Origin: Hygrophila difformis
Lineage: Eukaryota > Streptophyta > Magnoliopsida > Lamiales > Acanthaceae
NCBI GenBank assembly: GCA_030278955.1
Contig: JAOANR010000001.1
Span: 44,108,890-44,172,889, forward strand
Length of the DNA stretch: 64,000 bases
Direction: 5' to 3'
Shown: in pieces, positions 7,471 to 63,147 of the stretch
Layout: every line of letters begins with the position of its first letter
How positions within the stretch are numbered: the stretch's first letter is position 1
Notes under the pieces: model-generated
Database searches by the model: none
The model's input: the letters and a program-made list of their open reading frames with translations, nothing else
What the model was told of the DNA's origin: nothing
Translations under genes and position numbers: made by a program

Positions 7471-7657
7471 AAGTGTAACCCTAAGCCCATGGGCCTTGAT
7501 TTGAGCCCATTGTGTCTCAAGACTTCACACACATCACAACTTGGTCTCGAAGCGTCAAGTTTGGTCGCGGAACACACTGCATGTGGCAAAGCTTCTCGAC
7601 TGGGTCTTGTGTCTCTAATCGGGTGCCTCTTGGTCGCGGATCATGCCTTTGTCGCGG

Positions 7658-10494: not shown

Positions 10495-10564
10495 GAATTC
10501 TTGTTCCTCCTGCTGAGCTTCTTCTTCCGAATCATTCCCATCTGCAGCTTCAGTCAGAATTCCT

Positions 10565-13500
10565 TTAAACCTTTTCTTTAAGTGCAGAGGTCATGAGAGG
10601 GTCGTCTGGCTGCTTTTCCAAGGTTTTGGCCAGTGCCACCGGGTCTATGGAGTCTTGTGGCCCTTCTGACTGTTCGGGTTGGTGCGACGGGCCTCCTTGC
10701 GTGATGAATTCTTCAATTCTGGCTGTGCCCACGAGAGGATCGATCACTTGACCTACTTTTGTCTGATATTCGATTTGATGTGGCTTTTCTCCAGCATCGA
10801 TTCTCGTTTCGATTTGTTCATTAAGCCTCTTCCTTATGTCCCCTCGGATGGTCTCAGCATCATGTGCAGTGGGGCCAGTCCATGCAGGAGGTTGTTCTTT
10901 TTTAATTTTCAAACCTCGCCCTTGCACTTCTCCAGTGATCTTTAGCTCAAAGTCCTCCTCATTACCCCGCTCAACCTCTGCAGATTTCCTGCTTTCCAGC
11001 TCAGCCTGCATCTTCCTGGCAGTTTCTTCATCCTTTGTCTGCTGGATATTCTTTCGGATTTGCTCTTCCTCTGCAGCCTTCCTTTCCATTTCCAGGCGTT
11101 CTTCCTCAGTTAATTTTTCTATTCCCGAACCACCTGTCACTTGATCCAGCAAACCAGCTGATGCGAGCTCTTCATTGTACATCTTCATGGCTAGCTCAGC
11201 ATCGGACATCACCTGGTGCTTCTTTTTCGGGGGTGGCGGCGGCATTGGCTGTTTACCTTTGTCCTTAGGATCAGTGGGCTCTGCCACTCTCCTAACAGTT
11301 GGTTCCGGTTCCTTGATTTCTACTTTCTTTTCCGGAGCCCTTGCTGGCTTGTCCTTATCAGCGGACCTTATTAACCTTCTCCTCGTTCCCGGTTGACCTT
11401 CAGATGTAGCAGCAGCAGTGGAAGGTTTCTCGGGCTGTGTGGGTGCCTTAGTGGTGGCAGGTGCTACAACAGATGTTGTCGTTTCAGTCTGAGCTGACTG
11501 CACCACTGGCTCGGGCGTAACAACTTTTTGTTCTTCAGTTTGCCCTCTAGGCGGCAGAGCTGAAGCTTGTATTGCTGGCTGGGTAGGCTGTGGGTTGGCC
11601 TCAGGGGGAGTGGAGAAGTATGCATCAATTTCAGCGTCAGGATCTTCTTCCCTGTTCGGCTCACCCTCGTAGCCTAGTTGCTTCTCGGCGCGCTGCAAAT
11701 AATCCTCAATAAAGCTCCTTTGAGATATTCTCCTCAGTTGGTCCTCCCAGTCCTTCTTGATCTTGGAGCAGAACTTACTCCGAACATTATTGTTATAGTG
11801 CAGGACCTTCTTTCCATTAGCAGTACTGTTGCAGTATTCCAGTGCAAACTTGTCCATCTCCATGATCAAGTCCCAGTAGGAGTCTCTGTATTGATCTATC
11901 ATGCCTCCCACCAGATCCTTTTGAATCCCTTCCAGGTAGGACATGTCTTCTGCTGAATCATACGTGAGGTACATCCCAGCCTCAGCTTTTGATAGCAAAT
12001 TGAATTGCCTTTCATTTTTCCTTTTGGGTTTCCAGCCACCTTTGCGTATATCCACTTGTAGCTGATCCCTGAGTACTGCTATGTGCTGGGGAAATTCATC
12101 ATCTTTGTTCGTCCCGTACTGTCCATACTTTCTGTGTGTGAAGATGGTTTCAAGTACCTCATCTGCAGGTAGTACTACTCCTTCTTCCAGAAAGGACCCA
12201 GTGATACTTGGATTGCCTTTTCCCCAGACAGTAGTCAGGTCATCCCATTGTTCGCGTGCATCCTTGATCATCTTCCTCATGGTGTTCAACAGTGAGGTGT
12301 TACGGCTTTGCTCAAACTTCTCAGCATTTTTGAGGCGCTTGTATAGGTTGAAGGTCAGCTCTCGATGCCTGGCCCGAGCTAGATCTGTAATCCACCTCTG
12401 CTCCACTGGTCCTTTTGCTTCGAACAGATACGGGTTCCATTTAAATGGAAATGCTTCATACATCATGATGGCCCCACTGTTGATAACCCTACTTATATCC
12501 ATGTATTTGTGTTCGAAGGCCATCCGAACTTGAGGATCTACGATCTGGTTCGGGATGATGATGTCGAAGTCAGCTATATTCGGATCTTTTGTTCCCTTTT
12601 CTACATGCCGATTCCACACAGCCCTGTGCTCTCTGAACCTCAGTTGGATGCGCTCATGATGGACTTCTGGAGTTGTCTTTTCGTCTTGAGGGGCATACCC
12701 CATCATCCTTACCCAAAACTTCTTCAGGAAGTGGTAGTAGTCCCTTTCTATCGACGCAGCGACTATTGACCTTTCCTGTGGAGGGATATGCACATCCCAT
12801 CCCGGAGACAGTTTCAACTTTTCGTCCGTAGTGTGGTCCAGAGGCACTTTATAGACTGATTTGATGGCCTCTCTTGTGTCCTTAATCTCTGTTCGATCAA
12901 TTGAGGCCTGGTTGCCAGCTTCCTCATATGTGCAGTCAGGCAATCCGATGCCTGAGTGCACTACCAATGCGTTCCTGAAAAAGGTCAAAGTGCTTAGATG
13001 CATCCAACAATTTTATGAGTTTTCAAAGACTACTCAGGTGTGAAAACCAACATCCTCACATTTTGAGCTTTGCTAAGCTCGAAATGTGATTTAATTGATT
13101 TAATCTGAGTTTATTTAAAGGATCCAATTGTAAGGTATTATGCCTTAGGACCTAGAAGGAGATAACTTAATTGGGCTATTGAGTCCAATCAAAAGGGAGG
13201 AATAAAATAAAATAAAAATAAATATAAAAATAAAAGTGAAGTGGTCATTGGACCAAAAATTCCTTTTTTAGTGGGCCATTGGGCCCAAAAGTTTGTTTTT
13301 CCAATTTTATTAAACAAGTTCAAGGCACTTGTTGAAAAATGGAATGAGTTGATGATGAAGATGGAACGGATGGCTCGAAAATGGAATGTGCAGTGGAGGC
13401 GTGGCGGGATGGATTCGCTATCTCCGGATTGTTTGGACTGTCATTGGACAGTTAAAACGCTCAAGAAAATGCAAACACTATTTTTAATTTTGAAAAGGTT

Positions 13501-14472
13501 GACTTGTTTTTATTTAATGAAAAGTGGGATGTGTGTGGTCCCATTTTTGGATTTTTGTAAAAAGGTAGCAGTTGAGGTGGCAAAACACTGCTACTTAACT
13601 CACACTCTTTAATTCCATTGGGAACAAAAACACATTGTCAACCAAAATTCCTAGTACTATTTTTGTCTTTTAGTGAAAAAGTGCACTGCTGAAAAGGAAT
13701 TGGTGTGCACTAACATGCCAAAAACAATGCAAACACTCACTTTCCTCCATTTGCTGCACACAAACACAGACACACCAAAATGGGAAAGAGCATTAAATGA
13801 TCATCTTAGCATGCAATACTTATGAACACAGCAAGTTAAAAACACAAGATCATGCCTCCACTCGAGCCAACACATGGGACTAAAAGCATTTTCATCCCTC
13901 ACAAGTTCAAAAACCACAAGACCATTCATGCTCTACAATCAAGAAAATCAACAGCATATTGATACTCATGCAGTATTCCTATGTTCATCAAGTTTCACTT
14001 TTTCAAGATTTTTCAACAATCCAGGAGGGATCAAGATCAAGCAGACAAGACATGAGCATAATAGTCTAGAACACACAAAAGCAAAAGAAACTCAAAACTC
14101 AAAACCCACAACCATGGCGGAATCTACCACTGCCAAACCCTAGCCTTCATGAAATCAAAATTTCCACAACCCCCAACACTACCATCTGTGCTCCTCCATC
14201 AACCAACCAAAGTACCAAACCCCAACACCACATTCGGCCATTACGATAAAAACAGGGAATCACAGTCCAAACATGCCCAATACACAGAACCACTAAAATC
14301 GAACTCGAGACTCCACAAAAGAATGAAACAGAAGCCTATTTACACACGATAAAACAAAAAGAACGAAAATCACAAAAACAGGGGCCTGCGCTAACTCGCG
14401 AAATGCGTGGGAGAGAGGTTACCATGGCTCGGTCTTCTGAGGAGATGATGACGAGGGTTCTGATGGCTCCAT
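10565..14472 (-). CDS. Element B cargo, proximal part: spliced large ORF of unknown function
   Basis: Proposed join of exon 1 (14472-14423) and exon 2 (12974-10565), giving 819 residues. Exon 1 starts with ATG and ends at a GTAACC donor in phase 2. Exon 2 follows a pyrimidine-rich acceptor (TGACCTTTTTCAG) and restores the frame exactly. An unspliced reading from an ATG at 13003 is possible but would begin inside the apparent intron. I do not recognise the N-terminal 400 residues: they are mostly helical and rich in Trp, Tyr and charge (for example RWITDLARARHRELTF). The middle is Pro/Thr/Gln-rich and low complexity; the C-terminal third has a charged coiled coil (about residues 630-690). It has no signal peptide or obvious membrane segment, so it does not look like an envelope protein. 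It ends with TAA at a TTT run, where the distal part opens in another frame. Sits in the same slot as the F-box gene of copy C. Confidence 0.65.
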
Positions 14473-15540: not shown

Positions 15541-15685
15541 AATGTTCAATTGATCTTGAGGGTACTTTTTCTGTTCTGAATTAAATATATTACATTAAAC
15601 TAGACTACTCTAAGCTAATCTAGGAGTAATCAGGAGTGTAATCCTCTTAATAAATGACGCTGCATCCTCCCCGGCAACGGCGCCA
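15541..15685 (-). other. Element B leader, deletion junction and tRNA-Asp primer site
   Basis: The primer site lies at 15668-15685 (identical 18 bases to copy A). The sense-strand leader matches A's leader to about 15575, then switches to sequence that in copy C lies after the pol stop (GATCAATT-AACATTTAGAG block at about 24460-24480). Element B therefore has lost the whole of gag-pol between these points. Downstream at 15505-15530 the sense strand has a good splice acceptor (ATCTGTCTTGCAG) shared with C. Confidence 0.8.
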
Positions 15686-18494
15686 TGAAACTTTTGACAA
15701 GTTTCGTTAACTCGAGCTCTTTCTAAAACTATACCAGGTTAAATTTATTAAATGAGAAGAGTTATGATTTACGGGAAAGGGTTTAGGGATATGTCAAGAT
15801 TATCACTTTATTGCTCATGTGAGGGGCTTTAATTTCAAATGGCAATGTGGTCCTCTCTGTCATGAAATGCTGACAAATCTCATGGCATAGCCGGGATAAG
15901 TTGATCTTCAGCCTGTCACACTGAGGATCCCCGGCAAATATGCCATGATACTTCTCATCAAGCCTTGCCATAAGATTTCCTGCCATGAAACTTTTGACTA
16001 GTTCCCACTACATGAGTATTTTCTGAAAAGTCGTGATCCTGGTTTAGGTTTTATTTAATGAAACCAATTTATGATGGCGGTGTTGTGATTAAGGATATAT
16101 TTATATGTAGTCATGTTTTTATTGCTCGTAGCTAAGAAACTGTGCTCCCGAAAGCGCACGGTGTCAAAAATTGCAGTAATTTATAGTAAGACCGGATCGT
16201 TCACTGGAGGATGTGCGATAGAAGCAGGTCCCACGTCATTGACTAAGATTTTCCACTCGGTTACTCGAATCAAGTGTGTGATTTGGCTAACAACTACTTG
16301 ACAGAATCTAAATCAGATTAAGAAAGCATTTAAAATAAAGCAGATAAAAGTATTCTAGAAAGCGAATTAAATTTAATCTAAGGAAGCAATAAAATTAATC
16401 TAAGAAAGCGGTTAAGATTATTCTATGAAAGCAGATTTAAATGAGACAGAAGGGATAGGAAGAAAAGAATAAAGATTGGACAAGATTCAGATGAAACATA
16501 GTTAAACTTCCATTTTGTTACACAGGTCTTAGCTGGGGATAATCCGTTCAGTTAGCTAATTCTCATGCTCTCTGTACCATGTTCCCTTTAACAGACAGGT
16601 ACTTATAGTAAGAGTTTACATGCTCTTAAGAAAATAAATTCTAAAATACCACAGACGCATAACCACCCTCGCAATGCATTGCTAAGGTATGTTAATTATC
16701 CGTGGTGGACAAGCAACACCTGACAAATCATTTATTGAGGTGCCAAGTACTGTTATCATTCCCCCATGTCACGCCCAAAGATTCTAATTAAGCCCTGAAC
16801 TATCCCTTAACTCTCAGTCCTAGTAGCAGTTACACAACTCTCAATACAACCGAGTGACCTCTAAAGGAAGCAGTTAAAAGAAAGCAGTAAAGAAAGCATT
16901 TAAAGTCCTATCACTCGGAGGTTTCTGAAAGTTTGACCCTGGTAGTAAAAGAAAGCCCCCAGTCAGGATGACCGGATGTGGATCAAGAATTCCCTATTCT
17001 CAGTGAACCGCTCGCAGTGTTCACTTCCCGTCGGGTGATCATGAGATACAAACTAATGAAACGAACTAATAACTTAGTTCGTTCCGGATGCACTCACTCA
17101 GGACTCAAAAATAGGCTTTGGCAGAAGAAGATAGCAGTTGAAAGAATACTCAACCCTACCTTAGAAAATAACCAAGGCCCGAATGTTGTTCCTCTAGTAT
17201 TATCTATCACACCTTATCGGAGTCCAAGTGGAATCTGACTCGGTGTAATATTTAATACAGGATTTCCAACAAACAGCAATTTTGGAAAATAATAAATCTG
17301 AAAATCATTCCCTATCAGGTACTAGACTCTCAATAAGAACACAGACCCTTTCAGTCTAGGTGAGACCTAATCGCTGACTCTGCTTCTAATTTCCCAAAAT
17401 CAACCCCCAGTCGGATGTGAATTAGTCATAACTGTCGAATTTATCCCTTACTCAGATCCGGATTTTATAAAGGAATTTTTGTTGGAAATTTATTATGAAA
17501 CATCTGATTTAAAATCAAGACTCCTGTGTCCAAGGGAAGGATCCCAAAATAATATCGACCACAATATCTACATAATAATATCATGCATAATTTTATAGAG
17601 AAGGGTAAAATAAAATAACCCAAAATATAAGGTGGGTTTAGACAGAAGTGAAACACAGAGATGAAATAGCCGGAGATGAGAAGAATTTTGGCTAAAGAGA
17701 GTGCCAGAAATAACTGGGGTGATCTGGACTGCAAACACCTGCTATCCAGTTCCCAATTATTCCAGATGGAAAGATTTTAGATAGCAGAATAATCTTAACA
17801 ACAGTGATCGCTATCATCAAGACCCCTACTATCTGTGAAACGAGAAAAAAACCTACATGTTTTCTTGCTGTAATACTATTCAAGCAATGTTGATCGACAT
17901 CATTTGATACTATTACAGCTCAAAATTCGGGTTTGAAATTAAGATAAAGAAAAAGAAACTGTATCCGGATAGGAGTCAGCTGAGCAGCTATTATAATCCC
18001 GGATGGACGAACCGCCAAGGCGTCCACCGACCACTATCCGGACCATGCAAAATAACATCTAATAATTAATATACAGAATACGAGCTAGTTATCCATGAGG
18101 GAATACCCGCCAACATTAATCTGATATATTCCTTATTAGTTGTTTCACACATCACGGAAAAGACAAAATAAGTAAAAAAAAATATTTTTGGGTCATCTTG
18201 CATGAGAGACATTGGTTTCTCATGCAAAGTATGGAAATCATTCCATAGTTACTCTTCATGTCTAAATAATCACTCATTCCATAATTAACTAATCAATTAC
18301 AGTCCAGATTATATACTTAGATCATTAGAGTTTAATCATTTGTATAAGAATCTTTTAATAGGGAATTGAACAAAGTTCTTTATATCAAATTAATCATGGG
18401 TTGAGATCATTGGATTTCAACCTCAAAATATTAATATAAAGGTCCAATTAATTAATGGAGTGAAATGGAGAATGAGAATTTGGCAAAAGGTACC

Positions 18495-18966
18495 ACCTCG
18501 TCGCGATACAGGATTCGTGTCGCGGAGCATGGCTCCGCGACAAAGATTTCGCGACAAAGGGGTGGGAAATAGGAGAAATGGAATTTTGAAAGTTTGGGGT
18601 TTGTTTTGTCGCTAAGTAAAGAAAATTTTGTCGCGGAACGTGGCTCCGCGACAAGGGCATAGCGACAAGAAGGTAGAAAATTGGACAGGGCATAATTCTT
18701 GTCGCGGAACAAGAAGTTTGGCGCGGAACGTGGTTCCGCGACAAGGTTGCTTCGCGACAAAGCCCTACCAGAATAAAATTACAAGTATTTGGGTCCTTGG
18801 TCGCTAATCAAGATTTTGTCGCGGAACGTGGTTCCGCGCCAAGGGATGTTTCGCGACCAAGGGTTTTAAAATAGTGGCCAACAATTGTTCTGTGGCACCT
18901 TTGTCGCCAAAGCACCATTTTGTCGCGGAACGTGGTTCCGCGACAAGAGTTATTCCGCGACAAAGG
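18495..18966. repeat. Palindrome array, inner, LTR B
   Basis: Five units near 18512, 18627, 18698-18745, 18815 and 18920, mostly with complete arms and variant centres (CATGG, GTGGCT). It corresponds to 6290-6835 in LTR A and 30112-30655 in LTR C. Several units carry a change in one arm only (GCGCCAAGG for GCGACAAGG). Confidence 0.85.
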
Positions 18967-19689
18967 TGTGCCCAGGACACATGTCAGAAAAGTAAAGTGG
19001 AACAGTGGCATGCATTATGTGTGATCTCACCCATTTCAGATTCAAAAGCTAAACTAAGCTCAAAATAACAAGACAGAATTTGAATCTAGCTAGAACATGC
19101 TTGCACAAAATAGAAATAAAGCAAACTTAAAACTTAAGAAACCCTAATCTAAGCTTAATCATCCATAAACATGCAACATTATCCCAAGAGAAAGTCACCA
19201 AGCAGCGACATTAAAATGCAAAAACAGGGGTCAAATGACCCAAGGAAAATGAAAACAGTACAGATCCATGGGGTGTGAAGCCCATTTCATGATTTTGGGA
19301 CACAAATGGAGACTGTTTTCCCATTTTATTAAATGGTGTTGTTCATACTCATGGTTTGAGTATCACAAACCCTTAAACAAAAGTTTAGGACAAAAACACG
19401 GTATAAAAACTGGCTATCTAACCAAAGTGCAGTAAACTACATCTAACTAGTGCATAAATTAAATAATACAAAAGAAAACCTAACTAAACTACCCTAAACT
19501 ACACTAAACTACTGAACTCCCCAACTTGTCTTCAAGAAGGTGTAGTTTTTCTAAAATTCTTCCAACCTTTTGCTCAAAGGAAACACCTCATATTTATAGA
19601 GGGGAAACCCTAAGCTCATGGGCCTTGATTTGAGCCCATTGTGTCTCAAGACATCACACACATCACAGCTTTGTCTCGGAGCACCAAGT

Positions 19690-19915
19690 TTGGTCGCGGA
19701 ACACACTGCATGTGGCAAAGCTTCTCGACTGGGTCTTGTGTCTCTAAAAATGTACCTTGGTCGCGGAATGGACCTTTGTCGCGGAACAACACATCGCGAC
19801 GAAGGTATCGCGCCAAGGGGCTTTGGCTGGTCTCTTCTTCATCTGGGCTACTTGGTCGCGGAGTGCTCCTTTGTCGCGGAATCATGCATCGCGCCAAGGG
19901 GCTTCCGCGACAAAG
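19690..19915. repeat. Palindrome array, outer, LTR B
   Basis: Diverged TTGGTCGCGGAA / TTCCGCGACAAAGG units within the 530 bases nearest the LTR's sense start, just upstream of the TATA box at 19591-19599 on the minus strand. It corresponds to 29155-29400 in LTR C and to the stretch that runs into the N gap in LTR A. Confidence 0.8.
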
Positions 19916-20219
19916 GTCTTCTTGGGCCTGCTGGATTGGGCCAGATGGGCCGAGAATATTCTTTTTGTGGGCTTTTCTATCTTTTTCCCATCTTTTTGTT
20001 TCCTTTTCTTTTTCTCATGTTTATGGATTTTTCTAACATAAATATGCAATAAAATTACATATTTATGTCTTTTTCACACCAGCTTATTATTTTTACAATT
20101 ATGCATAAATCAGTCCAATTCGACTGCTTTCTTACTTAATGTAAGACCGGAATGCGATCAAATGCCCGTTTAAGACACGGAAATGGATTGAAAATAATGG
20201 TCATTTTTGGCCATTATCA

Positions 20220-23200
20220 CCTAGCACTGCGGAAAAGAACCCGCAATGCAAGGCAATAACCTTGAAATCTGGGAGAGTACTAGCTGGACCAAAGGGAGCA
20301 GATACTGGAGCGGAATTTGAAGAAGATGGTATTGTTGACAATGCTGGTAAGGAAGCTGACAATGGGAACGAAGCAGAAAAGGAGACAGCCGAATTACAGA
20401 CTGAAGCTGCACCTGAAACGGCTGAACCAGATAAGGGTACAGGTGAAGGTACAACTTCCTTCCCTTCACCACCAAAAATTGCTAATAACAAGTACATGCC
20501 CAGGATTCCTTATCCTGCGCGGCTTAAAAATAAAGAACATGATCTTAAATTCAAGAAATTTCTGCAACGATTAAAGTCTGTAGAGATAACCATTCCTCTC
20601 ACAGAAATGATTTCCGAAATGCCCATCTATGCTAAGTTCTTGAAAGAATTGATTTCAGGAAAAAGGCAGGTTGAGCAGGAAGAGGTAATTATTCTCAACA
20701 GCACATGCAGTGCCATCGTTCAGAGGAGAATGCCTGAAAAGAAAGAGGACCCCGGATGTTGCACACTTCCAGTACAATTCGGAAAGGCCAAAGTGAGTAT
20801 GGGGCTTTGTGATTTAGGATCAAGCATCAATGTGATGCCACTAGCTATGGTTGTTCGCCTCAAGCTTGGAGAAATTCAACCGGTCAAGATGAGACTGCAA
20901 CTTGCAGACAGATCGATCACTCAGCCCGTAGGAATCCTTAAGGATGTTGTAGTCAAAACCGGGCAAGTTCTTTTCCCGGTCGACTTCATCGTCCTCGACA
21001 TTGAAGAGGATTCTGAAATGCCACTTATCCTTGGACGCCCATTTCTAGCCACTGGTGGTGCACTGATTGACGCCAAATCCGGCAAAGTTACCTTAAGGGT
21101 CGATGGCGAGGAGATCATCTTTGATATGGAGAAATTGCAGAAATTTCCGAATGACAGTTCTTGTTTTTCTTTTGAAAATGTAATAGTTAGGGAAGAGCTT
21201 GACTCTGAACTTAAGTGTGAAATGATGCTGGATGAACCATCAAAGCAGGTACTGAAGCCTGCTGGCGTGGAGCACAAGGAATGCAAAGCCGTTCACTTCG
21301 CCGATCCCGAAACAGGGGATTTGGAGGAATTTGATGGCATGGACTTTCATGAGGACGCCAACCAAGAGGAGGAAGAGGATCCTGTACTGATGCAGGATCC
21401 CGAAGGTAAATCTGTTCTCCCACTACCCAATTCTCGCAAACTACTCCCTTCCGTTGAATGTCCACCAGAGCTTGAACTTAAAACACTACCCGATCATCTC
21501 AAGTACGCGTTTCTCGCAGAACATAAAAAGTTACCTGTGATTGTTTCGGCTAAGCTCTCCCAAGAGCAAGAAAATGCTCTGGTGGTCGTTCTTAAGAAAC
21601 ATGTACATGCAATAGGTTGGACCATTTCTGATATAAAAGGAATAAGCCCTTCTATTTGCATGCACAGGATTCTAATGGAAGAAGAGTTTAAACCCTCCCG
21701 TCAACCTCAGAGGCGATTGAACCCCCTTATGCAAGAAGTGGTAAGGAAAGAAGTTATCAAGCTCTTAGATGCTGGTATAATCTATCCTATCTCTGATAGC
21801 AAATGGGTTAGCCCAGTGCAGGTCGTACCCAAACGAGGAGGGATGTGCATAACCAAGAATGAGCAAGGAGAAGAGGTTGCAACCAGGCCAGTGACCGGAT
21901 GGAGAGTTTGTATCGATTACCGGAAGCTGAATGAGGCCACACGCAAGGACCATTTTCCATTGCCATTCATTGATCAGATGCTTGAGAGGTTGGCAGGGAG
22001 AGAGTTTTATTGCTTTTTGGATGGTTATTCTGGTTATAATCAGATTGTTATTTCCAGTGAAGACCATGATAAAACCACTTTTACTTGCCCGTACGGCACT
22101 TTTGCCTATCGACGGATGCCTTTTGGTTTGTGCAATGCACCTGCTACTTTTCAAAGATGCATGATGTCTATTTTCTCTGAATTTATCGAAAAATGCATTG
22201 AGGTCTTTATGGATGACTTCTCTGTATATGGAGATACGTTCGAAGATTGTTTGACCAATCTTGCTAAGATTTTAAAGAGGTGTGAGGACACTAACTTGGT
22301 TTTAAATTGGGAAAAGTGCCATTTTATGGTCACTGAGGGCATAGTGTTAGGTCATCGCATTTCTCGTGCAGGCATTGAAGTTGATCCAGCCAAAGTTTCC
22401 ATCATTTCCAATCTCCCTCTCCCTAACTCGATCAAATCAGTTAGGAGCTTCTTAGGGCATGCCGGTTTTTACCGGCGATTCATTAAGGACTTCTCTAAAA
22501 TTGCCAAGCCGCTCACTAATCTGCTTTGTAAAGAAAATCCTTTCTTAATAAATGAAGCGTGTGTCCAAGCCTTTGACACGCTCAAGAAGATGTTGGTTTC
22601 TGCACCGATAGTGCAACCACCCGATTGGTCAATACCTTTCGAGGTAATGTGCGATGCTAGTGGTCTCGCTGTAGGCGCAGTTCTTGGACAACATAAGGAT
22701 GGGAGACATTGCGTAATTCATTACGCAAGTCATGCCCTGAATGAAGCCCAAGTTAACTACACCACAACGGAGAAAGAGATGTATGTTGTAGTCTTCACGT
22801 TCGACAAGTTCAGACAGTACCTAATAGGTACAAAGACCATAGTATACACCGATCATACAGCATTGAGATACTTGTTTAGCAAACAAGATGCAAAACCTCG
22901 ATTAATCAGGTGGGTACTTCTGTTGCAAGAATTCGACATCATAATAAAAGATAGGCGAGGTCGAGATAATGGTGCTGCTGACCACTTATCTCGATTAGAT
23001 AATGATAAAAAGGAAAAAGCCGTCAATGAGGATTTCCCGGACGAACAGTTGTTCGCGTTGCATCTGCATAATCAAGCTTGTCCATGGTTTTCCGACATCG
23101 CTAACTTCTTGGCATGCGGAGTAACCCCCCAGTTTTCGAACTATCATCAGAGGAATAAGTTCAAGCGAGATGTATTAAGTTACTTCTGGGAAGAACCTTA

Positions 23201-24371
23201 CCTTTTCAAACACTGCCCTGATTTAATAATCAGGCGATGTGTGACCGAGCATGAAGCTTATCAAATTGTCAGAAAATGCCATGAATCAGAATATGGAGGT
23301 CACCATGGTCCCGCTCGAACGGCCCACAAGGTCCTCGAATGTGGATTTTATTGGCCTCACATCTATGAGGATTGCAGGACATTTGTTAAGGGCTGTGACA
23401 GATGCCAAAGATTAGGAAACATTTCCAAGAGGGATGAGATGCCTCAAAAGGGGATTCTCACGCTTGAGATCTTTGATGTATGGGGCATTGACTTCATGGG
23501 ACCGTTTCCACCATCTGGTGGAAACTACTACATCTTGGTAGCTGTCGATTACGTATCCAAATGGGTCGAGGCTGTCGCATTACCGACCAATGATGGTAGC
23601 CAAGTCATCAAGTTCCTCAAGAACAACATTTTCAGTCGATTTGGCGTACCTAGGGTGGTGATATCTGATGGAGGAACACACTTTATTAATAAAGGTTTTG
23701 AAACTTTAATGAGTAAAAATGGAATCCTCCATAAGATAGGCACGCCTTATCATCCCCAGACTAGTGGTCAAGTCGAAGTATCCAATCGCGAAATCAAACA
23801 CATACTCGAAGCCACTGTCGGGATAACCCGTAAGGATTGGGCACGTAAGCTCAATGATGCTCTATGGGCATACCGCACAGCATATAAGACTCCCATCGGG
23901 ATGTCTCCATATAGGCTGGTCTTCGGAAAAGCCTGTCATTTGCCCGTAGAGCTAGAGCATAAAGCTTACTGGGCCGTTAAAACGCTTAACTTCGATCCGA
24001 AAGTTGCTCAGAGCAAACGTAAGTTGGACCTCAATGAAATTGAGGAAATACGAGCGCAAGCTTATGAAAGCTCTCGAATTTACAAGGAGCGGACCCAGAA
24101 GTTGCACGATCGCCGGATCAAACCTAAGTATTTTTATGTTGGTCAACATGTGTTATTGTTCAATACTAGGTTGAAGCTGTTCCCCGGAAAGCTCAAATCT
24201 AGATGGGAAGGACCACATGAAGTACTAGAGGTGTTCAAAAATGGAGCTGTCAGGATTCGAACTGGCAGGGGCGATATAGTGGTGAATGGACAACGATTGA
24301 AGGAGTACCTCGGACAGTTCGATCCGGAGAAAGAAAGCCAAGCAGTGGCAGACCCGGCTTACACTCAATAA
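20220..24371 (+). CDS. gag-pol: Copy C: Athila-like Ty3/gypsy gag-pol, 5'-truncated by insertion
   Basis: Open for 1,383 codons from the junction at 20220 with no internal stop. It lacks the gag N-terminus, which is separated by the inserted LTR B. Domains in order (residues counted from 20220): aspartic protease (CDLGSSIN near 197, LILGRPFL), reverse transcriptase (VCIDYRKLN near 563, [20 protein letters not shown] near 662), RNase H (MCDASG near 810, YTDHTALRY near 876), integrase with an HHCC finger (GGHHGPART to CDRCQR), and a DDE core (GIDFMG near 1089, SDGGTHF near 1149, GQVEVSN near 1183). RT and integrase motifs are those of the Athila lineage. It ends before a 4.4-kb cargo region and its LTR. 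In structure it was probably functional until interrupted. Confidence 0.93.
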
Positions 24372-24854
24372 GAAACAGCATTTAAAAATACAAAAATTTC
24401 AGTCTATATATATAGTATATATTTGCAGTATTTATTTCATGGCAAGAAAGTACCCAAAGATCAATTAAACATTTAGAGTACTAAGACTCTAAATGTGAGG
24501 ATGTTGATATTTGGAGAAAATCTAATGCGTCTTATTTGTCTGTCTTGCAGAAGTTCGGAACCACTAAAAAGAGGAGCAGATGACAGTAACATGGAAAACC
24601 AGGTTCTTGGTTGGATTAGTTCTATAAATCTGAGAAAACGTTCTCGGGAATTGAAGAAATTCAAGACCCGAAACAAAATTCACAGATAAAATGGAACTGA
24701 CCCAACCTAATTTTATGCAAGTGGATTATTTAATTTTCAGCCCAGCATTTTGAATTTACTTGGACTAAATTTATTCAGCCCAAGTCAAATAAAATGGACG
24801 CAGGCCCAATACCACACTCGGGCCCAGTCCAAGAATATTTGAAAATTCAAAATC
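24372..24854 (+). other. Copy C post-pol spacer with hairpin, repeated motif and splice acceptor
   Basis: Non-coding. Holds a small inverted repeat (TTTAGAGT ... ACTCTAAA, 24474-24495), the motif AAATGTGAGGATGTTG (24493-24508), and a strong 3' splice site (TTTGTCTGTCTTGCAG, ending about 24550) with homologous sequence in element B. This suggests that a spliced subgenomic RNA skips gag-pol, as known for envelope-like ORFs of some plant gypsy elements; here it is inferred from sequence only. Confidence 0.6.
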
Positions 24855-25165
24855 CTTTGTCGCGGAAGGACCTTTGTCGCGATGTCATGCATCGCGACCA
24901 GGCCCTGCTCCGCGACAAACTCCCTCTCTCCTTCTTAACCCTTCCCCACATCCTGTCGCGATGCACCTTGTCGCGGAGCATGACTCCGCGACCAACCCCT
25001 GCTCTGCGACACGATTTGCGTTGACTGTCTCCATACTGAACTTTGTCGTGATGGCCTTGTCGCGGAGCATGACTCCGCGACCAACCCTCAACTCCGCGAC
25101 CACTCTAATGTCGCTATGCCTTGTCGCGGAACCGTGTTCCGCGACAAAATCTCGGATTCCGCGAC
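24855..25165. repeat. Palindrome array upstream of copy C cargo promoter
   Basis: Units near 24860-24900, 24955-24990, 25055-25085 and 25120-25165: TTGTCGCGG, a short centre, then its complement (CGCGACAA or CGCGACCA). It is followed within about 15 bases by a TATA-like box and then a run of 19 C (25185-25203). Confidence 0.85.
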
Positions 25166-25176
25166 AAAAGTTCAAG

Positions 25177-25184
25177 TATTTATA
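25177..25184 (+). promoter_or_regulatory. TATA-like box of copy C cargo promoter
   Basis: TATTTATA followed by a C19 run and a CT-rich tract, 155 bases before the ATG of the leader exon. Element B has the same arrangement. Promoter role inferred. Confidence 0.45.
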
Positions 25185-25338
25185 CCCCCCCCCCCCCCCC
25201 CCCTCCAGTTTCTTTTCACCTTCCTTCTGTCATTTCAACTTCTTTCAGTTTCTTCATCTTCTTTTCCCCCATTTTTCTCTCATCCGAACGAACACCACGT
25301 GTTCTTCGCACTCTTGCATGCCATTTCTAAGGGAAACT

Positions 25339-27152
25339 ATGGACCGATTTCATGGACCCCTCCCAATCCTTGGACCCGTGCCTAGACCCGAGCCAAGGAG
25401 GAGAGGGTAAACCCTATTTTTACCATGGTCATAGCCCCCCTTCGGACCCCTTAGTTCTTTTATTTATTTTATTTTGTTGTGTTCGTGGTGTGGTGTTGTT
25501 AGTGTGCATATCCAACTTCAGATTTTTGGAGGTTTTGAGTGCCCTCGGCTTTGAGCACCATTTTGAAGTTTTTGAGAACTTGCTTTGAAAACTGCTAAAG
25601 GGTGTTAAAACTGTTAATGGATAAGGTTTTTGAAGTTTAAAAATTGGAAAGAACAAACTGATAAACATTTGGGTATTGTTTTGAATATCTTGATGTTATT
25701 AGTTTGATTGATCCTGATGTGATGTGCGCAGTGTGGGTGGTGTAATAAAGATGGAAGATCTTTTTGGGCACATTTGTTCTCATGTTAGAAATCTCATGGG
25801 AATAAATGTTTGATTGTTTATGGAAACATAGTACAAACACCCAATAGGAAGCTTCCACTTTTAATAAAAGCAACCTTTTAGAAAAAGACAAAAAGAGTTA
25901 TTTTTGTTTAATGTTTGACTTGAGTTTTGTTCCCAATGGAACACTAGTGTGAGTAAGATAGCAGTATTTTGCCACCCAACTGCTATCCTTTTCAAAAATC
26001 AAAAATGGGACCACTCACATCCCACTTTTATTAAATAAAACAAGTCAACCATTTGTAAAATCAAAAACAGTGTTTGCAAATTTTTGGATGCTAAAACTGT
26101 CCAAACAGTCCAAGCTATTCAGAAACAGCAAATCCGTTCCGCCACGTCTCCATTGCACATTCCAATATTCGAGCATTCCATTTCCACCTATTCATCTCAT
26201 TCCACTTCCAACAAGTGTCTCGGACTTGTTTAATAAACTGAAAACTTTTGGGCCCTATGGCCCATTAAAAAGATTTCAGGCCCAATGGCCAATTTTATTT
26301 TATTTTGGGCTCTCTAGCCCATTTAAAACCAAATATTATTTACATATGCTTTAAATAAAAATTCAAGTCAGAAATTTAATAATCTCACATCTAGAGCAAA
26401 GCTCTAAATGTGAGGATGTTGGTTTCTAAACTTGAATAATTTCCGAAAATTATATAAAAATTGGATTCATCACTTCTTATCTTTTCAGGGACAATCTTCC
26501 AAACCCAGACCCTGCACCCGAAGAAACCCATCTGCTGGACTTACCCCTCGAGCTCCTGGGTGAAATCCTCTCTCGTGTAGGAGAGAATGACATCAGTGAA
26601 GCCTTCAAAGCACAGCAAACCTGCAAGAAATTCAGGGATGCCGGAAACCTCTCCATCGTCTACAAACGATGCGAGGTCAACACATCCACTATAAAGAGAG
26701 GACGGGAGTACTATCGTTGGGAGAAGCGGAGATTCCTTCGGACATGCGACCAGGCTGGAAACCACAATCTCCAAATCATTCCAGCAATGTTGGCATTTGC
26801 AGAGGGGAATGAAGAGCAAGCCTATGAACTGCTACGCCTGGGGATCGAGGACAATCATAAAGCGACAATCTTTGCCTACGGGTTGATGCTCATGAGCAAG
26901 GAGGACCCAGGGCAGATCGAGCAGGGAATCAGGATGATTGACAGGATAGTGACAAGATGGTCAGTCTTCCAAGGCACATCCGTCAATGTCCTCGAATGGA
27001 TGGTTGACCAACCAGACACCCCATTCCTATGGGCTGATCAGGAAGGCAGAGTTTACTGCCCCAGGGATCACGAGGCCATAACAGATCCCAATGATTGGTG
27101 TCTGCGGTGTGAGCTATCCAGCTATCTCCACTGGGCTAGTTACATGTTCTGA
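25339..27152 (+). CDS. F-box protein carried inside copy C (retrotransposon cargo)
   Basis: Proposed join of exon 1 (25339-25406) and exon 2 (26489-27152), giving 243 residues. Exon 1 starts with ATG and encodes a short Pro/Arg-rich leader; the donor is GAGAGG/GTAAAC. Exon 2 follows CTTATCTTTTCAG and joins in phase 2, the same phase as in element B. Residues about 38-80 form an F-box (LPLELLGEILSRVGENDISE, then CKKFRD). The remainder is helical with an AYELLRLGIEDNHKATIFAYG-type repeat and a C-terminal C-x...-CLRC cysteine cluster, as in the plant F-box family of At2g35280 type. Known F-box proteins bind SKP1 and pick substrates for SCF ubiquitin ligases; the target here is unknown. It lies between pol and the 3' LTR, in the orientation of the element, and is uninterrupted, which suggests selection or recent capture. 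Confidence 0.75.
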
Positions 27153-27378
27153 AAGAAAGGAAGAAGCATGAATCCGAATTTACCCTGCTTTATTTGATTT
27201 CCAGTCTAGTAGTAGTAATCTGCAAGGGATTTCCTCCTTTTGTGTGTGCAGGTTCGTATTAACTGCACGAGAATCCCTTGCCTCGGATGTATTTAATTGC
27301 TTTCCCTAAAATTGGAACTCAACCTTTGAGACCACTGAACAGATCTTTACTTGCTTTCCTTTTGAAAAAAAAAAAGAT

Positions 27379-27452
27379 GTCTGTACAGTCCGAGATGAAT
27401 AAGTGACTGTCAGACCAAAAATATGCTGTTGACATACTCAGTATGTCAGCAG
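27379..27452 (+). other. Two conserved stem-loops downstream of the cargo (copy C)
   Basis: Inverted repeats at 27379-27415 (GTCTGTACAGTC ... GACTGTCAGAC) and 27426-27452 (CTGTTGACATAC, loop TCA, GTATGTCAGCAG). Both exist in element B at 8442-8514 although the cargo in front differs, so they belong to the backbone of the element. They may be RNA structures for 3' processing, export or packaging; this is inference. Confidence 0.7.
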
Positions 27453-28849
27453 TGACTCTTTACTGCTTTCAATTAAATAACCAGCAAAAATATGCATAAA
27501 CTTGCTCTAAATTCACATGTTGAATTTAGGCTTGTGATTAAATTTTCAAACTTTTAAATTGGGATAATATAATTGAGAACATGCATGAAATAAATTTCTG
27601 AGGTTTTGAGCTATAAAAATTTAATGATGCGATCAGCTTATTGGGTAATAAATCTGCATGTTAGAGATTTTGATTGAATAAATTGTTAGAATTAAGCTTT
27701 GATTGAATTTGCGAATATTGTATGACATGAATCAATCCAACCTTGTGAGATTTGAGCCATGAGTCACTTTTACTCATTCATTTTCTTTGATGTGTGAATC
27801 ATTTTGATTAAAGGAAACTAGAACTTGCGATTGGGACCGATTCAAGACCATGCCATATTCCCGAAATCGAGAATATGATCGAGGCACTTAGAAAAACCCA
27901 AAATTTTTGGCCTTCGTTTGAAATCCAAACCCAAAAATATTTTCCCTTTAGGATTAACCAAGTTGAGCCTTTAAGCCTAATTTTTCTTTGAAACCCTCTA
28001 TATTATTCCTAGCCTTGCAAAAAGACCAAGAAATTCAAACCCAAGTGTGCAAGGATAAATTCGATCAAGGCATTACAGTTTGTGATCATCATGAAAACTA
28101 TAAATCGGTATTCTATAAACCGATTCAAAAAAAAAAAAAAAAAAAAAAGAGAGATGTTGAATTTCAGTCAACAACAATAAATTGCAAATGACAAAGCAAA
28201 TTAGACATAGTCTAATGTCAATGCAATATGAAAAGAGAAAAGCAAAAAGAAAGAAACAATGATGATCATAAATTTTAAATAAAAATGCCAAGTTATGATG
28301 GAATTAAATTCTTGCCACTACTTAGCCTAATAATTTCCCTTTCCTACCTAATGTTACAACCGTACGCCCCGTTATAACCCTTAAATAAGACCTCGTGATC
28401 TCGATTTGAAGAAATGAGCCGGTGGCGAGTTGGTCTGATTGCAAGCATATGGGAGAATTTAATTAAATTTGATTTTGAGCGTTCATGATTAAACCCCAAC
28501 TGAGAGTGAGTGAGTTTTCCGATTCTCTTATAAGTGAGGCCTTTTCTCTTTACACATGTTCGTGTCACACCTTAATTCTAATTTTTAATCTTTGCATCTT
28601 TCAAACATGACATTCATGAAGGATTGATAATAATGTTTGATTTGTAGGCCTGATATAGTGAGCAAGTATCATTTCATTAAACACTGCAATCAAGGGAATT
28701 CAACACTTGTAGTTTTTGATTGTCTTATCCCAATTCAAAAAGGATGTGATTTATGAAGCCACGAAAATGAATTGAATATGTAGAGTCCGTGTTCCTAGGA
28801 ACATTGACTCTGACTGCTCGGGGACGATCAGTATTAAATGTGAGGATGT
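27453..28849 (+). other. Copy C 3' internal non-coding region and plus-strand priming site
   Basis: AT-rich, no convincing reading frame. The first 290 bases match element B. There is an A run at 28126-28149. The last 15 bases before the LTR are AAATGTGAGGATGT, partly purine-rich, in the place of the polypurine tract. The same motif occurs at 24493 and 26409. Confidence 0.6.
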
Positions 28850-29154
28850 TGATAATGGCCAAAAATGACCATTATTTTCAATCCATTTCCGTGTCTTAAA
28901 CGGGCATTTGATCGCATTCCGGTCTTACATTAAGTAAGAAAGCAGTCGAATTGGACTGATTTATGCATAATTGTAAAAATAATAAGCTGGTGTGAAAAAG
29001 ACATAAATATGTAATTTTATTACATATTTATGTTAGAAAAATCCAAAAACATGAGAAAAAGAAAAGGAAACAAAAAGATGGGAAAAAGATAGAAAAGCCC
29101 ACAAAAAGAATATTTTCGGCCCATCTGGCCCAATCCAGCAGGCCCAGGTAGACC

Positions 29155-29400
29155 TTTGTCGCGGAAGCCCTTGGCGCGATGCAGTGTTCCGCGACAAAGG
29201 CATACTCCGCGACCAACTGATCCCGAATGAAGAGGAGACCAGCCAAGCCCCTGGCGCGATGACCCTTGTCGCGATAGCATGACTCCGCGACAAAAGCCCA
29301 TTCTGCGACCAAGATGCACAAATAGAGACACAAGACCCAGTCGAGAAGCCTTGCCACATGCAGTGTGTTCCGCGACCAACTTGATGTTCCGAGACAAGCT
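29155..29400. repeat. Palindrome array, outer, LTR C
   Basis: Units of CTTTGTCGCGGAAG / GTTCCGCGACAAAGG type, diverged, ending about 65 bases before the TATA box at 29468-29476. Confidence 0.8.
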
Positions 29401-30111
29401 GTGATGTGTGTGATGTCTTAAGACACAATGGGCTAGAATCAAGGCCCATGGGCTTAGGGTTACACTTCTATAAATATGAGGTGTCTCCCATGAGCTAAGG
29501 GTTGGTTGATTGGAAGTTTGAAAATTAGGAGTTCTTGAAGGCAAGCAGTAGGAGTTCTCTCTTAGGTAGAGTAGTTAGGTTTATTTTTATGTATTATTTA
29601 ATTTTTGCACTTAGTTTAGTTTAGATTAGTGTTTTACTGTTCACAGTGCTTAGATAGCCATTTTTATACTATGTTTTGGTTTCTAAACTCTTGTTTTAGG
29701 GTTTGTAATACCCAAATCATGGGTATTAACAACACCTCTTCAATAATATGGGAAAACATTCATCATTTGTGTCCCAAATCATGAAATGGGTCTCACACCC
29801 CATGGATTTATGCTTTCTTTTTCATTTTGGGGTCATTTGACCCCCATTTTGTCATTTTCATGTTTACTGTTAGCATATTATGGATAATGTTGTGTGGATG
29901 TGTGATCAAACCCTAGATTAGGATTCCTGCTTTATTTTAATATCCTGCCCAGTCTTGTTATTTTTGTTTAAGCATGTTCTTCCTTATTTTGAATGTTTCT
30001 TGTCATTTTTAGCTTAGAATAGCTTTTTGATCTGAAATAGGGTGAGATCACGCTGTTTGCATGCCACTGTTCATTTCTGCTTTTTCTGACTTTTGTCCTG
30101 AACCACCTTGG

Positions 30112-30655
30112 GCGCCAACCGCCTTCTGGCGCGGAGCCACGTTCCGCGACAGAGTGGCTGTTCCGCGACCAAGGTGTTTCAAGACACTTGTCTCTATAAT
30201 TTAAAACCCCTTGTCGCGGAATACCTTGTCGCGGAGCCACGTTCCGCGACAAAACTATCCATGCATAGCGACAAAGGAGCCAAACTCTTGCATTTTGTCT
30301 TCATGGCTTCTTGTCGCGGAATCACCCTGTCGCGGAGCCACGTTCCGCGACAAAACCCCATTCCGAGACAGAAAAATTATGCCATGTTTCTTAATCTTTG
30401 GACACTTTGTCGCGGAACACCTTGTCGCGGAACCACGTTCCGCGACAAAATCTCCATGCATAGCGACAAAGTTTCAAAAGCCTTAGAATTTTCTGAAAAC
30501 ACTTTGTCGCGATGTCACCCTTGTCGCGGAGCCACGTTCCGCGACAAAACCTTGCATAGCGACAAAGAGGCGTTATGCTGCCAAAAATTCTAAAAACTTG
30601 TCGGGATGTCCATGTCGCGGATCTCGGTCCGCGACAACATTTATGATATAGCGAC
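30112..30655. repeat. Palindrome array, inner, LTR C
   Basis: About six units near 30125, 30228, 30328, 30420, 30520 and 30612, spaced 95-105 bases. Most have the GTCGCGGAGCC / CGTTCCGCGAC form, so one or two bases of an arm differ from those in LTR A but pairing is largely kept. Confidence 0.85.
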
Positions 30656-33558
30656 AAGGGTTTCTCTCTCTATTTGATCTCAAACAAATTTCATTCTCTT
30701 TCCATTTTATATTGCAACACTCACATCATAGCCCCACGGGTTAGGATGTAACATTCTGGAATTGCAATATAGGGTGTTATGCTGCCCAAATTTTGATTCT
30801 CCATTGGCATCACTTAACTGATTGAACCCTTGATTCATCAATGATTAAAGATTGAGATTAGCAATAATCAAACTTCAATAATCATCATGATTAAAGGACC
30901 TTTGTTCAATTGCCATTAAAACACTCTTGTATAAACAAAATCCTGATGGCTTAAACAGATAATCTGGACTGTAATTAATTATGGTAGGAAGGATTATTTA
31001 AGACCATTACATGTGGATCCGATCCACAACCTTGCATGAGAAACCAATGTCTCTCATACAATGGATCTTCTTTTGCTTCTTATTTATTTTGTCTTTGTGT
31101 ATTGTGTGGAACCATTAGTAAAGAATACATCAGAATAATGTTGGCGGGTACTCCCTCATGGACAACTAGCTCGTATTCTGGGTATTAGTTACTAATCGTT
31201 ATTTTGCATGATCTGAATGGCTGTCAGTGGAAGCCTTGGCGGTTCGCCCATCCGGGGTTATAATAGCTGCTCAACTGACTCCCATCCAGATACAGTTTTA
31301 TTTTTGTTATCTTAATTTCCAAACCCAAATTCCAATCTGTAATAGGAACCAGTTGGCATCAGTCAATGCCAACTGATGATCATTATAGAAAGGAAGCATG
31401 TAGGTTTTTATCCGAATTCACAGACAGTGGAGGCCCAACTGGTGTTGACACCACCATTACAGGGTCTAAACTGTCTAAATTCGCTCCATCCGAGTGATTG
31501 GGAAATTGGACAGTAGATGTTTACAGTCCACCTGATTATTCTGCCATTACTTTGGTACCCTGACCATTCCAATCTGTGTTTCACTTTCTGTCTAGACCCG
31601 CTTCTATATTTTGGGTAAATTAATTTTACACTCCCATATATCCTTATGCATGATAATATTATGTACTGCTGTGGTCTATAATTATTTTGGGATCCTTCCC
31701 TTGGACAATAGAAGTCTAGATCTTAAACAGATATTGCTTTATAAACTTCCAACAAAAACCTCTTTATAAAATCCGGATCTGAGTAAGGGATAAATTCCTC
31801 AGTTATGACTAATTCATATTCTATCAAGGGTTATATTTTGGGAATTAAGAAGCAGATTCAGCGATTAGGTCTCGTCTAGACTGAAAGGGTCTGTGTTTTA
31901 ACTGAGAGTCTAGTACCTGACAGGGAATGATTTTCAAATCCATTATTTTCCAAAATTGCTGGTTAATGGAAATGTAAGATTAAGTGCTACACCGAGATGG
32001 GGTCCACTTGGATTCAAATACAGTGTAGTAAATAACCTTAGAGGAACATCATCCAGGCCTTGGTTATTTTCCAAGATAGGGTTGAGTTTTCTTTCAACTG
32101 CTATCCTCTTCTGCCAAAGCCTACTTTTGAGTCCTGAGTGAGTGCATCCGGAACGAACTAATTTATTAGTTCGTTTCATTAGTTTGTATCTCATAATCAC
32201 CCGGAAGAAAGTGAACACACTAGTGGTTCACTGAGAGCCGGGAATTCTTGATCCATCCTCCTTCATTCTGACGGGGAGCTGTCTTTTACTACCAGGGTCA
32301 GATTTTCAAAACCTCCGAGTGATAGGTTTTAAATGCTTTCTTTACCGCTTTCTCTTAACCGCTTTCATTAGAGGTCACTCGGTTGTATTGAGAGTTGTGT
32401 AACTGCTACTAGGATTGACAGTTAAGGGATAGTTTAGGGCTTGATTCAAACCTTTGGGTGTGACATGGGAGAATGATAGTGGTACTTGGCATTTCAATAA
32501 ATGATGTGTCGGGTGTTGCTTATCCACCACAGATGAAGTAACATACCCAGGCCAGGGCAGTTACGAATTTGTGGTATCTTAGAATTTGTGGTCTTAAGAA
32601 CATGTAAACTCATATTGCAAGTACCTGTCTGCTAAAAGGGAAAGCCTTATTGAGAGCATGAGAATTAGCTATCTGAAAGAATTACCCCAAACAAAGATCT
32701 GCGTATAAAAATGGAAGTTTAATATTGCTGTATCTCGCTCTTGTCCAATCTTCATTCTTTTCTTCCTGTCCTTTCTGTCCACATTGTGACTCAACTTCAC
32801 GGTTGGCACAATGCTCCTTTTCCCTGCTTTCGTAGATAATGTTTGCTGCATTCTTAGAATAATCCTTATCCGCTTTCTAGAATAGATTTATTTGCTTTGT
32901 AGATTAATTTAATTGCTTTCTAAATCTAATTTACATTCATGTCAGTAGTTATTAATCACCTTCCAAACCTATTGAGCAATACGAATGGAAAATCTAGTAA
33001 AACGACGTGGGACCTGCTTCTATCGCACATCCTCCAGTGAACGATCCGGTCTTACTATAAATTACTGCAATTTTTGACACCGTGCGCTTTCGGGGGCACA
33101 GTTTCTTAAACACGAGCAATAAAAATATGACTACTTATAAATATATCCCTAATCACAACCCCGCCATCATAAATTGGTTTCATTAAATAAAACTTGAACC
33201 AGGATCATGATTTTTCGGAAAATACTCATGTAGTGGGAACTTGCCAAAAGTTTCATGGCAGGAACTCTCATGGCAAGAATGGATGAGAAGTATCATGGCA
33301 TACTTGCCGGGGATCCTCAGTGTGACAGGCTGAAGGTCAACCTATCCCGGCTATGCCATGAGATTTGTCAACATTTCATGACAAAGAGGACCACAGCGCC
33401 ATTTGAAATAGAAGCACCACACTTGAGTAATAAAAAGACTAATAACTTTGATATATCCCTAAACCCTTTCCCGTGAATCATAACTCTTTTCATTTAATAA
33501 ATCTAACCTGGTATAATCTTAGCAAAAGCTCGTGGGACGGAAATTGTCAAAAGTTTCA

Positions 33559-63130: not shown

Positions 63131-63147
63131 CGCAAGAATCCCCCAAT

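What the first reader, a model, noticed from the sequence alone, without database searches (positions are those of the whole stretch)
24372..28849. A retrotransposon 'cargo slot': F-box gene with its own promoter, leader exon and intron inside an Athila-like element
Seen: between pol and the 3' LTR of copy C lies a palindrome array, a TATA-like box, an ATG leader exon (25339-25406), an intron with good splice signals, and an open F-box exon (26489-27152), all in the element's orientation. The joined frame is exactly in phase. In element B the same flanks, intron and phase surround a different coding exon. Known: some Athila relatives carry an envelope-like ORF here, expressed by splicing. Inference: this family has replaced it with an exchangeable, independently promoted cassette, and in C it carries a host-type ubiquitin-ligase adaptor that could affect silencing or defence proteins.
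Basis: partly seen in the sequence, partly recalled or inferred. Interest (0 to 1): 0.93.

Follow-up and report, generated by a model that had tools for sequence, protein, structure and literature searches.

The report
Retrotransposon with a swappable F-box gene
A plant jumping gene carries an F-box gene in the very place where a related copy beside it carries an unrelated gene, both starting just past the same predicted splice site in a shared framework, so elements of this kind likely swap a spare gene as a unit, here one predicted to make an adaptor for protein disposal.

Summary
The observation mostly holds. Element C (20220-33558, 5' half missing) has pol, an array of GTCGCGGA/TCCGCGAC palindromes, a TATA-like box, an ATG leader, a predicted 1082-nt intron and an open exon (26489-27152). 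The joined product matches Pfam F-box and TPR_27 above their cut-offs. Element B (minus strand) has the same backbone, without gag-pol, around an unrelated cargo with PF20167, a domain reported for a sunflower Athila 3' ORF. B-C homology ends within about 6 nt after the predicted 3' splice site and resumes at 27372. Beyond the slot the flank is 95% and the LTR start 99% identical, against 78% in the two longest upstream pieces, so one 3' end seems to have been joined recently to two different genes. Corrections: the first ATG is 25318; the ATG aligning with B's (25352) is out of frame with the F-box; C is interrupted by B; no relative of the F-box protein was found. Transcription, splicing, SKP1 binding, copy number and any anti-silencing role are untested; the genome search did not complete. 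Extra 3' ORFs in such elements and an F-box gene between LTRs are known. New, as far as my searches go: an F-box in this slot and a swap bounded by the splice acceptor.

The parts
20220..24371 (+). C: pol (RT, RNase H, integrase), open frame; 5' half of the element missing because B's LTR abuts here
   Evidence: Pfam RVT_1, RT_RNaseH, Integrase_H2C2, rve; no RVT_3 or Chromo hit at E <= 0.5; B LTR start TG at 20219
24465..24510 (+). C: hairpin followed by TGTGAGGATGTTG (site 1), 44 nt before a second acceptor-like TGTCTTGCAG (ends 24550) shared with B
   Evidence: fold z -4.2, 0 of 200 shuffles as stable; alignment with B
24859..25165 (+). C: array of GTCGCGGA/TCCGCGAC palindromes, also found in the LTRs and upstream of B's leader
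   Evidence: motif positions
25177..25184 (+). C: TATA-like box TATTTATA, predicted internal promoter
   Evidence: pattern search and alignment with B's TATTTAAA at 14639
25318..25406 (+). C: leader exon, coding part; first ATG 25318, in frame with ATG 25339
25407..26488 (+). C: predicted intron, 65.7% A+T; leader exon 44.9% (from 25318), coding exon 48.9%
26375..26425 (+). C: hairpin plus TGTGAGGATGTTG (site 2), 67 nt before the acceptor
   Evidence: fold z -6.4, 0 of 200 shuffles as stable; distance
26489..27152 (+). C: F-box exon (F-box plus TPR_27), ends in TGA
   Evidence: Pfam; best of six frames by codon usage of C pol and A gag
26494..27371 (+). C: the slot, the stretch without BLAST-detectable homology to B between aligned flanks
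   Evidence: B-C BLAST and MAFFT
27372..28849 (+). C: 3' flank; first 364 bp 95% identical to B's; ends in AAATGTGAGGATGT at the LTR
28850..33558 (+). C: 3' LTR, TG...CA, 4709 bp, no PBS after it
15686..20219 (-). B: 5' LTR (first 200 bp 99% identical to C's LTR start), abutting C's pol
15668..15685 (-). B: primer-binding site TGGCGCCGTTGCCGGGGA, followed by a short leader and the post-pol flank without gag-pol
14423..14472 (-). B: leader exon, coding part (first ATG after the TATA-like box at 14639)
12975..14422 (-). B: predicted intron
8698..12974 (-). B: different cargo, two overlapping open frames (12974-10565 and 10590-8698); the second has PF20167 Transposase_32
8158..8521 (-). B: 3' flank shared with C at 95%, cut by the N gap 7658-8157

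Best explanation
Element C is a likely Athila-type plant LTR retrotransposon that carries an F-box gene in its post-pol slot, where sister element B carries an unrelated PF20167 gene, and this gene is likely transcribed from the element's internal promoter, likely spliced onto a shared leader exon that supplies its start codon, and likely arrived when reverse transcriptase switched templates between related element RNAs. Shown by sequence: both exons sit between the same flanks; homology ends within about 6 nt after the predicted 3' splice site and resumes at 27372; neither coding exon has an in-frame ATG near its start (first internal Met at residue 123 of C's 243-aa product and 107 of B's joined product); in each element the first ATG after the TATA-like box runs in frame through the predicted splice into the long frame. 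Shown: the shared 3' flank and LTR start are 95-99% identical while the two longest upstream pieces are 78% identical; that one 3' end was recently joined to two different genes is the reading I draw from this. Inferred: internal promoter activity, splicing, template switching, SKP1 binding. Most likely function, inferred and least certain: an SCF adaptor that helps the element by turning over a host protein that limits it.
For: Pfam hits above cut-off. B-C alignment of TATA-like box, leader, intron end and acceptor, with homology lost after the acceptor. Resumption at 27372/8521 and the jump in identity. In-frame joins in both elements and splice-site ranks. B's cargo domain occurs in other plant elements of this type. 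The family's pol evolves under purifying selection: dN/dS 0.14 between A and C over 474 codons, one stop codon in A left out.
Against: No RNA evidence. Only one F-box copy was seen: the own-genome search did not complete, so spread of the F-box form is unproven. C's 5' LTR is absent, so transposition after the swap cannot be shown. The in-frame join alone has a chance near 7% per element. The ATG in C that aligns with B's start is out of frame. B-C identity is patchy along the LTR: windows near its far end and middle also reach 88-91.5%, so part of the high identity at the LTR start could be constraint rather than recent exchange. The structure model was too poor to use (mean pLDDT 42.3). B's first cargo frame stops at 10565, so B's cargo may be broken.
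Confidence: 0.65

Rival explanations
1. One-off transduction: a single copy picked up a piece of a host F-box gene that was never used or spread.
For: Only one F-box copy is known here. Gene pick-up by LTR retrotransposons with few copies is described (PMC7264820, part 1 of 3 read), and an F-box gene flanked by LTRs is listed in Thlaspi arvense (PMC8764390, passages).
Against: The F-box lacks its own ATG yet is in frame with the element's leader and open over about 220 codons. No plant relative was found. The slot edge coincides with the element's predicted splice site.
Confidence: 0.22
2. A host F-box gene into which pieces of the element were inserted.
For: The exon's relation to host genes could not be traced; an F-box/LRR gene of another family lies at 62168-63169.
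Against: Flanks on both sides are element sequence in the right order and orientation, continuous with pol and the 3' LTR, and B repeats them around another exon.
Confidence: 0.04
3. Expression from the LTR instead of an internal promoter: a long RNA is spliced to the acceptor-like site at 24550 and then from 25406 to 26489, as for env-like genes.
For: A conserved TGTCTTGCAG acceptor-like site stands upstream in both elements. Spliced env-like messages are reported for barley Bagy2 (PMC7264820). The leader's frame is open upstream from 24793, with in-frame ATGs at 24961, 25051, 25069 and 25108.
Against: Such a message would carry 13 ATGs before 25318. The first seven are either in another frame or, at 24580, 24691 and 24715, cut off by a stop before 24793. 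The first ATG after the TATA-like box fits in both elements.
Confidence: 0.25
4. Chance or chimera: the join is coincidence and B or C is misassembled.
For: There is an N gap at 7658-8157, and the in-frame join alone is not rare.
Against: B's cargo and its 95% flank lie on one gap-free stretch, and the 99% match at B's 5' LTR start agrees with it, as reverse transcription would copy that end.
Confidence: 0.06

Closest known systems
Athila-lineage Ty3/gypsy elements with extra 3' ORFs
   Same: Post-pol sense ORF; partial PF20167 similarity in a sunflower Athila 3' ORF (PMC11728184, passages); no aRH hit in C's pol, the domain that distinguishes the Tat clade (PMC6317226, passages)
   Different: Cargo is an F-box gene; backbone with TATA-like box, leader exon and intron shared by two unrelated cargos
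F-box gene flanked by LTRs in Thlaspi arvense, 'LTR-gene' TaChr6G576 (PMC8764390, passages)
   Same: An F-box-family gene between LTRs
Athila-type elements with a LONELY GUY (LOGL4/YgdH) ORF (Steinbauerova 2011, recalled, not held; YgdH in Citrus elements in PMC9289625, section 12)
   Same: A host-like gene in an extra ORF
   Different: Different gene; no splice-bounded exchange in the text I saw
Orchid Ty3/gypsy elements with a 2-ODD ORF (PMC9289625, passages and section 12)
   Same: A host-type domain acquired as an extra ORF
   Different: Dual-RNase H (Tat-type) element; different domain. The paper's screen of 121 genomes does not mention F-box in its main text; its supplement was not seen
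Foamy virus internal promoter (PMC7828637, one figure legend)
   Same: A retroelement with an internal promoter besides the LTR
   Different: Animal virus; here the promoter is only predicted
Polerovirus P0 (PMC6593998, search listing with abstract start)
   Same: A parasite's F-box-like protein that binds SKP1 and suppresses silencing
   Different: Analogy only, no homology tested. That abstract start says AGO1 loss runs through autophagy and leaves the role of SKP1 open

Membership tests
Athila lineage (Ty3/gypsy) | Ty3/gypsy pol order RT-RNase H-integrase | tested here: met
   Pfam RVT_1 582-738, RT_RNaseH 827-929, Integrase_H2C2 1034-1088, rve 1110-1203 in C's pol
Athila lineage (Ty3/gypsy) | No aRH domain (the Tat clade has it) and no chromodomain | tested here: met
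   No RVT_3 or Chromo hit in C's pol at E <= 0.5; aRH criterion from PMC6317226
Athila lineage (Ty3/gypsy) | tRNA-Asp primer-binding site, as in Calypso and Diaspora | tested here: inconclusive
   TGGCGCCGTTGCCGGGGA directly after the LTR in A and B; that it pairs with tRNA-Asp is recalled; PMC1142308 reports tRNA-Asp for relatives, there 5 bp after the LTR
Athila lineage (Ty3/gypsy) | Position in an RT tree | not tested
   No reference RT set with lineage names was at hand; the listed pol relatives are unclassified plant proteins
F-box protein | F-box domain above Pfam cut-off | tested here: met
   PF00646 24.7 bits against cut-off 20.5
F-box protein | Binds SKP1 | not testable with these tools
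   No wet-lab data; structure model poor
env-like gene | Transmembrane segment and env similarity | not tested
   Only F-box and TPR_27 were above cut-off in the joined product; no transmembrane predictor was run

The most novel reading that the evidence does not exclude
Athila-type retrotransposons carry a true cargo bay: promoter, start-codon exon, intron and acceptor form a fixed expression cassette, and whole coding exons are exchanged at the splice site by recombination between element RNAs; in this lineage the bay holds an SCF ubiquitin-ligase adaptor that the element uses to remove a host silencing or restriction protein, a retrotransposon counterpart of polerovirus P0.
Probability: 0.2. 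Interest if true: 0.87.

Novelty: new variant of a known kind. Interest (0 to 1): 0.6.

Why it matters
Extra ORFs of such elements are highly diverse and are thought to come independently from several sources; the passages I saw give no mechanism (PMC6317226). An exchange whose edge falls at a splice acceptor, in a backbone that supplies promoter and start codon, would explain how unrelated genes become expressible at once, and it can be tested by searching genomes for the backbone. An F-box cargo would also make it directly testable whether plant retrotransposons fight back through protein degradation.

Tried and rejected
Splicing as the origin of B's gag-pol loss: where the alignment places B's departure from A's leader (TTCAGAAC), A has no GT, and the junction shows only short shared letters, so I prefer a deletion or template jump. 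Fresh host-gene copy: no relative among the plant-holding protein database; the tool needs shared 5-residue words and may leave out near genomes. Structure route: the single-sequence model is poor (pLDDT 42.3), so no fold search was run. Solved-structure search: 3 weak matches, best E 0.042 to a designed helical repeat, nothing usable. IMG/VR scans: none with pol; with the F-box protein 3 pattern matches, none confirmed. Literature, held open library only: no paper with F-box, Athila, retrotransposon and env-like; 10 with Athila, env-like, splic and retrotransposon; 2 with F-box, LTR retrotransposon, Athila and captured, of which I looked into one, the Thlaspi paper; 9 holding at least two of extra open reading frames, Athila and LOGL4; 0 with F-box, retrotransposon, additional ORF and LTR; 21 with F-box and Athila, judged by title and abstract start except the Thlaspi paper; 1 on internal promoters; 4 with F-box, LTR retrotransposon, gene capture and plant, judged by listing. 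In the codon test my printed z-scores for the F-box exon used the wrong frame; the correct frame is the third plus row (0.096), the best of six. On re-checking I lowered the main confidence from 0.68 to 0.65 because B-C identity is patchy along the LTR, and interest from 0.62 to 0.60 because of the Thlaspi precedent.
Full report
What is there. The window holds parts of three related Ty3/gypsy elements. A (minus strand, from the left edge) has an LTR ending at 3394, a primer site, and a frame with gag and a protease hit just below Pfam's cut-off. B (minus) has an LTR at 20219-15686, the same primer site and, after a short leader, the region that lies after pol in C. C (plus) has pol from 20220 to 24371, a post-pol region to 28849 and a 3' LTR at 28850-33558 with TG...CA ends and no primer site after it. 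B's LTR start abuts C's pol, so B most likely inserted into C; C's 5' half was not found in the window. A gap of 500 N lies at 7658-8157.

Element type. C's pol has RT, RNase H and integrase domains and no hit to RVT_3 (the aRH type) or a chromodomain at E <= 0.5. PMC6317226 (passages) separates the Tat clade from Athila by aRH. The RT-RNase H part of pol finds 7948 relatives, the most that the tool scored; the 120 listed bear plant names such as Rosa, Coffea and Tripterygium. Between A and C over 474 codons dS is 0.235 and dN 0.033 (ratio 0.14, one stop codon in A left out), so the family's pol has been under purifying selection. Athila membership is likely but was not tested on a tree.

The F-box gene. 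The joined 243-aa product has an F-box (residues 38-74) and a plant TPR_27 domain (100-178), both above Pfam cut-offs. Its coding exon has no in-frame ATG before residue 123, so it needs the leader. The leader's first ATG after the TATA-like box is 25318, and 25339 is in frame with it; both reach the donor at 25407 and continue in frame after the acceptor at 26488. B behaves alike: first ATG 14472, first internal Met of the joined product at residue 107. Mononucleotide shuffles of the leaders give such a result in 7.5% (C) and 7.2% (B, over 475 nt of its exon), each modest alone. The acceptors rank first of 15 and of 10 AGs by pyrimidine content; the donors rank first of 18 and tied first of 28 GTs. 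The exon's frame has the best codon score of six (0.096), close to B's cargo frame (0.122).

The slot. Aligned with MAFFT, B and C share the post-pol flank, the palindrome array, the TATA-like box, the leader, the 3' part of the intron and the acceptor; BLAST carries the last upstream piece to 26471. Homology ends within about 6 nt after the acceptor and returns at C 27372 / B 8521. In between lie 878 nt in C and about 4.4 kb in B. B's cargo consists of two overlapping frames, the second with PF20167. Partial PF20167 similarity is reported for a 3' ORF of an active sunflower Athila (PMC11728184, passages). Of the 120 listed pol relatives, 3 carry PF20167 in the precomputed Pfam column and none an F-box; few of these gene models need reach the slot, so the absence says little. 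I scanned 6 of the 120, those 3 included: PF20167 is above cut-off in 2 of the 3 (P0008, P0064; P0066 is below), and it comes next after an integrase domain in 2 of the 3 (P0008, P0066), while in P0064 another RT and RNase H lie between. So B's cargo looks like the usual occupant and the F-box like the substitute.

Evidence for exchange. Upstream of the slot the two longest B-C pieces are 78% identical (507 and 450 columns), two shorter ones 70%. Downstream the first 364 bp are 95% identical, and the first 200 bp of C's 3' LTR are 99% identical to B's 5' LTR start, falling to 92, 88 and 76.5% in the next windows. The two agreeing places in B lie about 11 kb apart, and reverse transcription copies the 3' end's U3 into the 5' LTR, so I read them as one recent donor segment. 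Against this, LTR windows further on also reach 88-91.5%, so part of the identity may be constraint. Template switching is the inferred mechanism.

Points against. The ATG in C that aligns with B's start codon (25352) is out of frame with the F-box, so 'same phase' is true only for ATGs that do not align. Nothing shows transcription. A message started in the LTR and spliced at 24550 would carry 13 ATGs before 25318, the first seven of no use to the F-box frame, four later ones (24961, 25051, 25069, 25108) in the open F-box frame; this favours the internal promoter but leaves the LTR rival open. The F-box protein found no relative in two searches, which argues against a recent copy of a conserved host gene but does not exclude a fast-evolving one. 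The own-genome search did not complete in 11 tries, so copy number is open.

Function. By its domains the product is predicted to be an SCF adaptor. Polerovirus P0 and crinivirus p22 are silencing suppressors with F-box-like motifs and SKP1 binding (search listing with abstract starts); for P0 the same listing says that AGO1 loss runs through autophagy and that the role of SKP1 was unclear. That a retrotransposon would use such a trick is inference by analogy only.

Verdict. A well-bounded variant of a known kind. Elements of this group with extra 3' ORFs are known, host-type domains in such ORFs too (LOGL4, recalled; YgdH and 2-ODD), and an F-box-family gene flanked by LTRs is listed in Thlaspi arvense (PMC8764390, passages). 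The F-box in this slot, the backbone shared by two unrelated cargos and the swap edge at the splice acceptor are what I did not find in print with the searches, most of whose papers I saw only as listings.

Noticed in passing
24465-24510, 26375-26425 (+); 15550-15505, 13095-13045 (-): A hairpin followed by TGTGAGGATGTTG recurs at two places in each element, in C 44 and 67 nt before an acceptor-like site. Folding z is -4.2 to -6.4, with 0 of 200 shuffles as stable in each of the four. The same motif without a stable hairpin (z -1.0) abuts the 3' LTR at 28839, so it may be an extra polypurine-tract-like site or a splicing signal.
   Followed up: partly
6296-7633, 18519-19904, 29158-30628: The GTCGCGGA/TCCGCGAC motifs upstream of the cassette recur in the LTRs and nowhere else in the window. 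In C's and A's LTRs a TATAT stretch follows the array, so the internal promoter may be a copy of the LTR promoter design.
   Followed up: partly
15560-15690 (-): B keeps LTR, primer site and cassette but no gag-pol: a non-autonomous derivative that consists of little but cargo. The junction does not look like splicing.
   Followed up: partly
62168-63169 (-): An F-box/LRR gene (PF00646, PF24758), probably a host gene, of another family than the element's F-box.
   Followed up: no
37997-38592: A 93-bp tandem array, 6.4 copies, 98% matches, with an open frame of 205 aa without Pfam match at E <= 0.001.
   Followed up: no
46401-49213 and 55054-57867: Two near-identical 2.8-kb repeats (98.7%) flank a Ty3/gypsy element with one 1583-aa frame and a chromodomain hit below Pfam's cut-off, probably a young insertion.
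   Followed up: no
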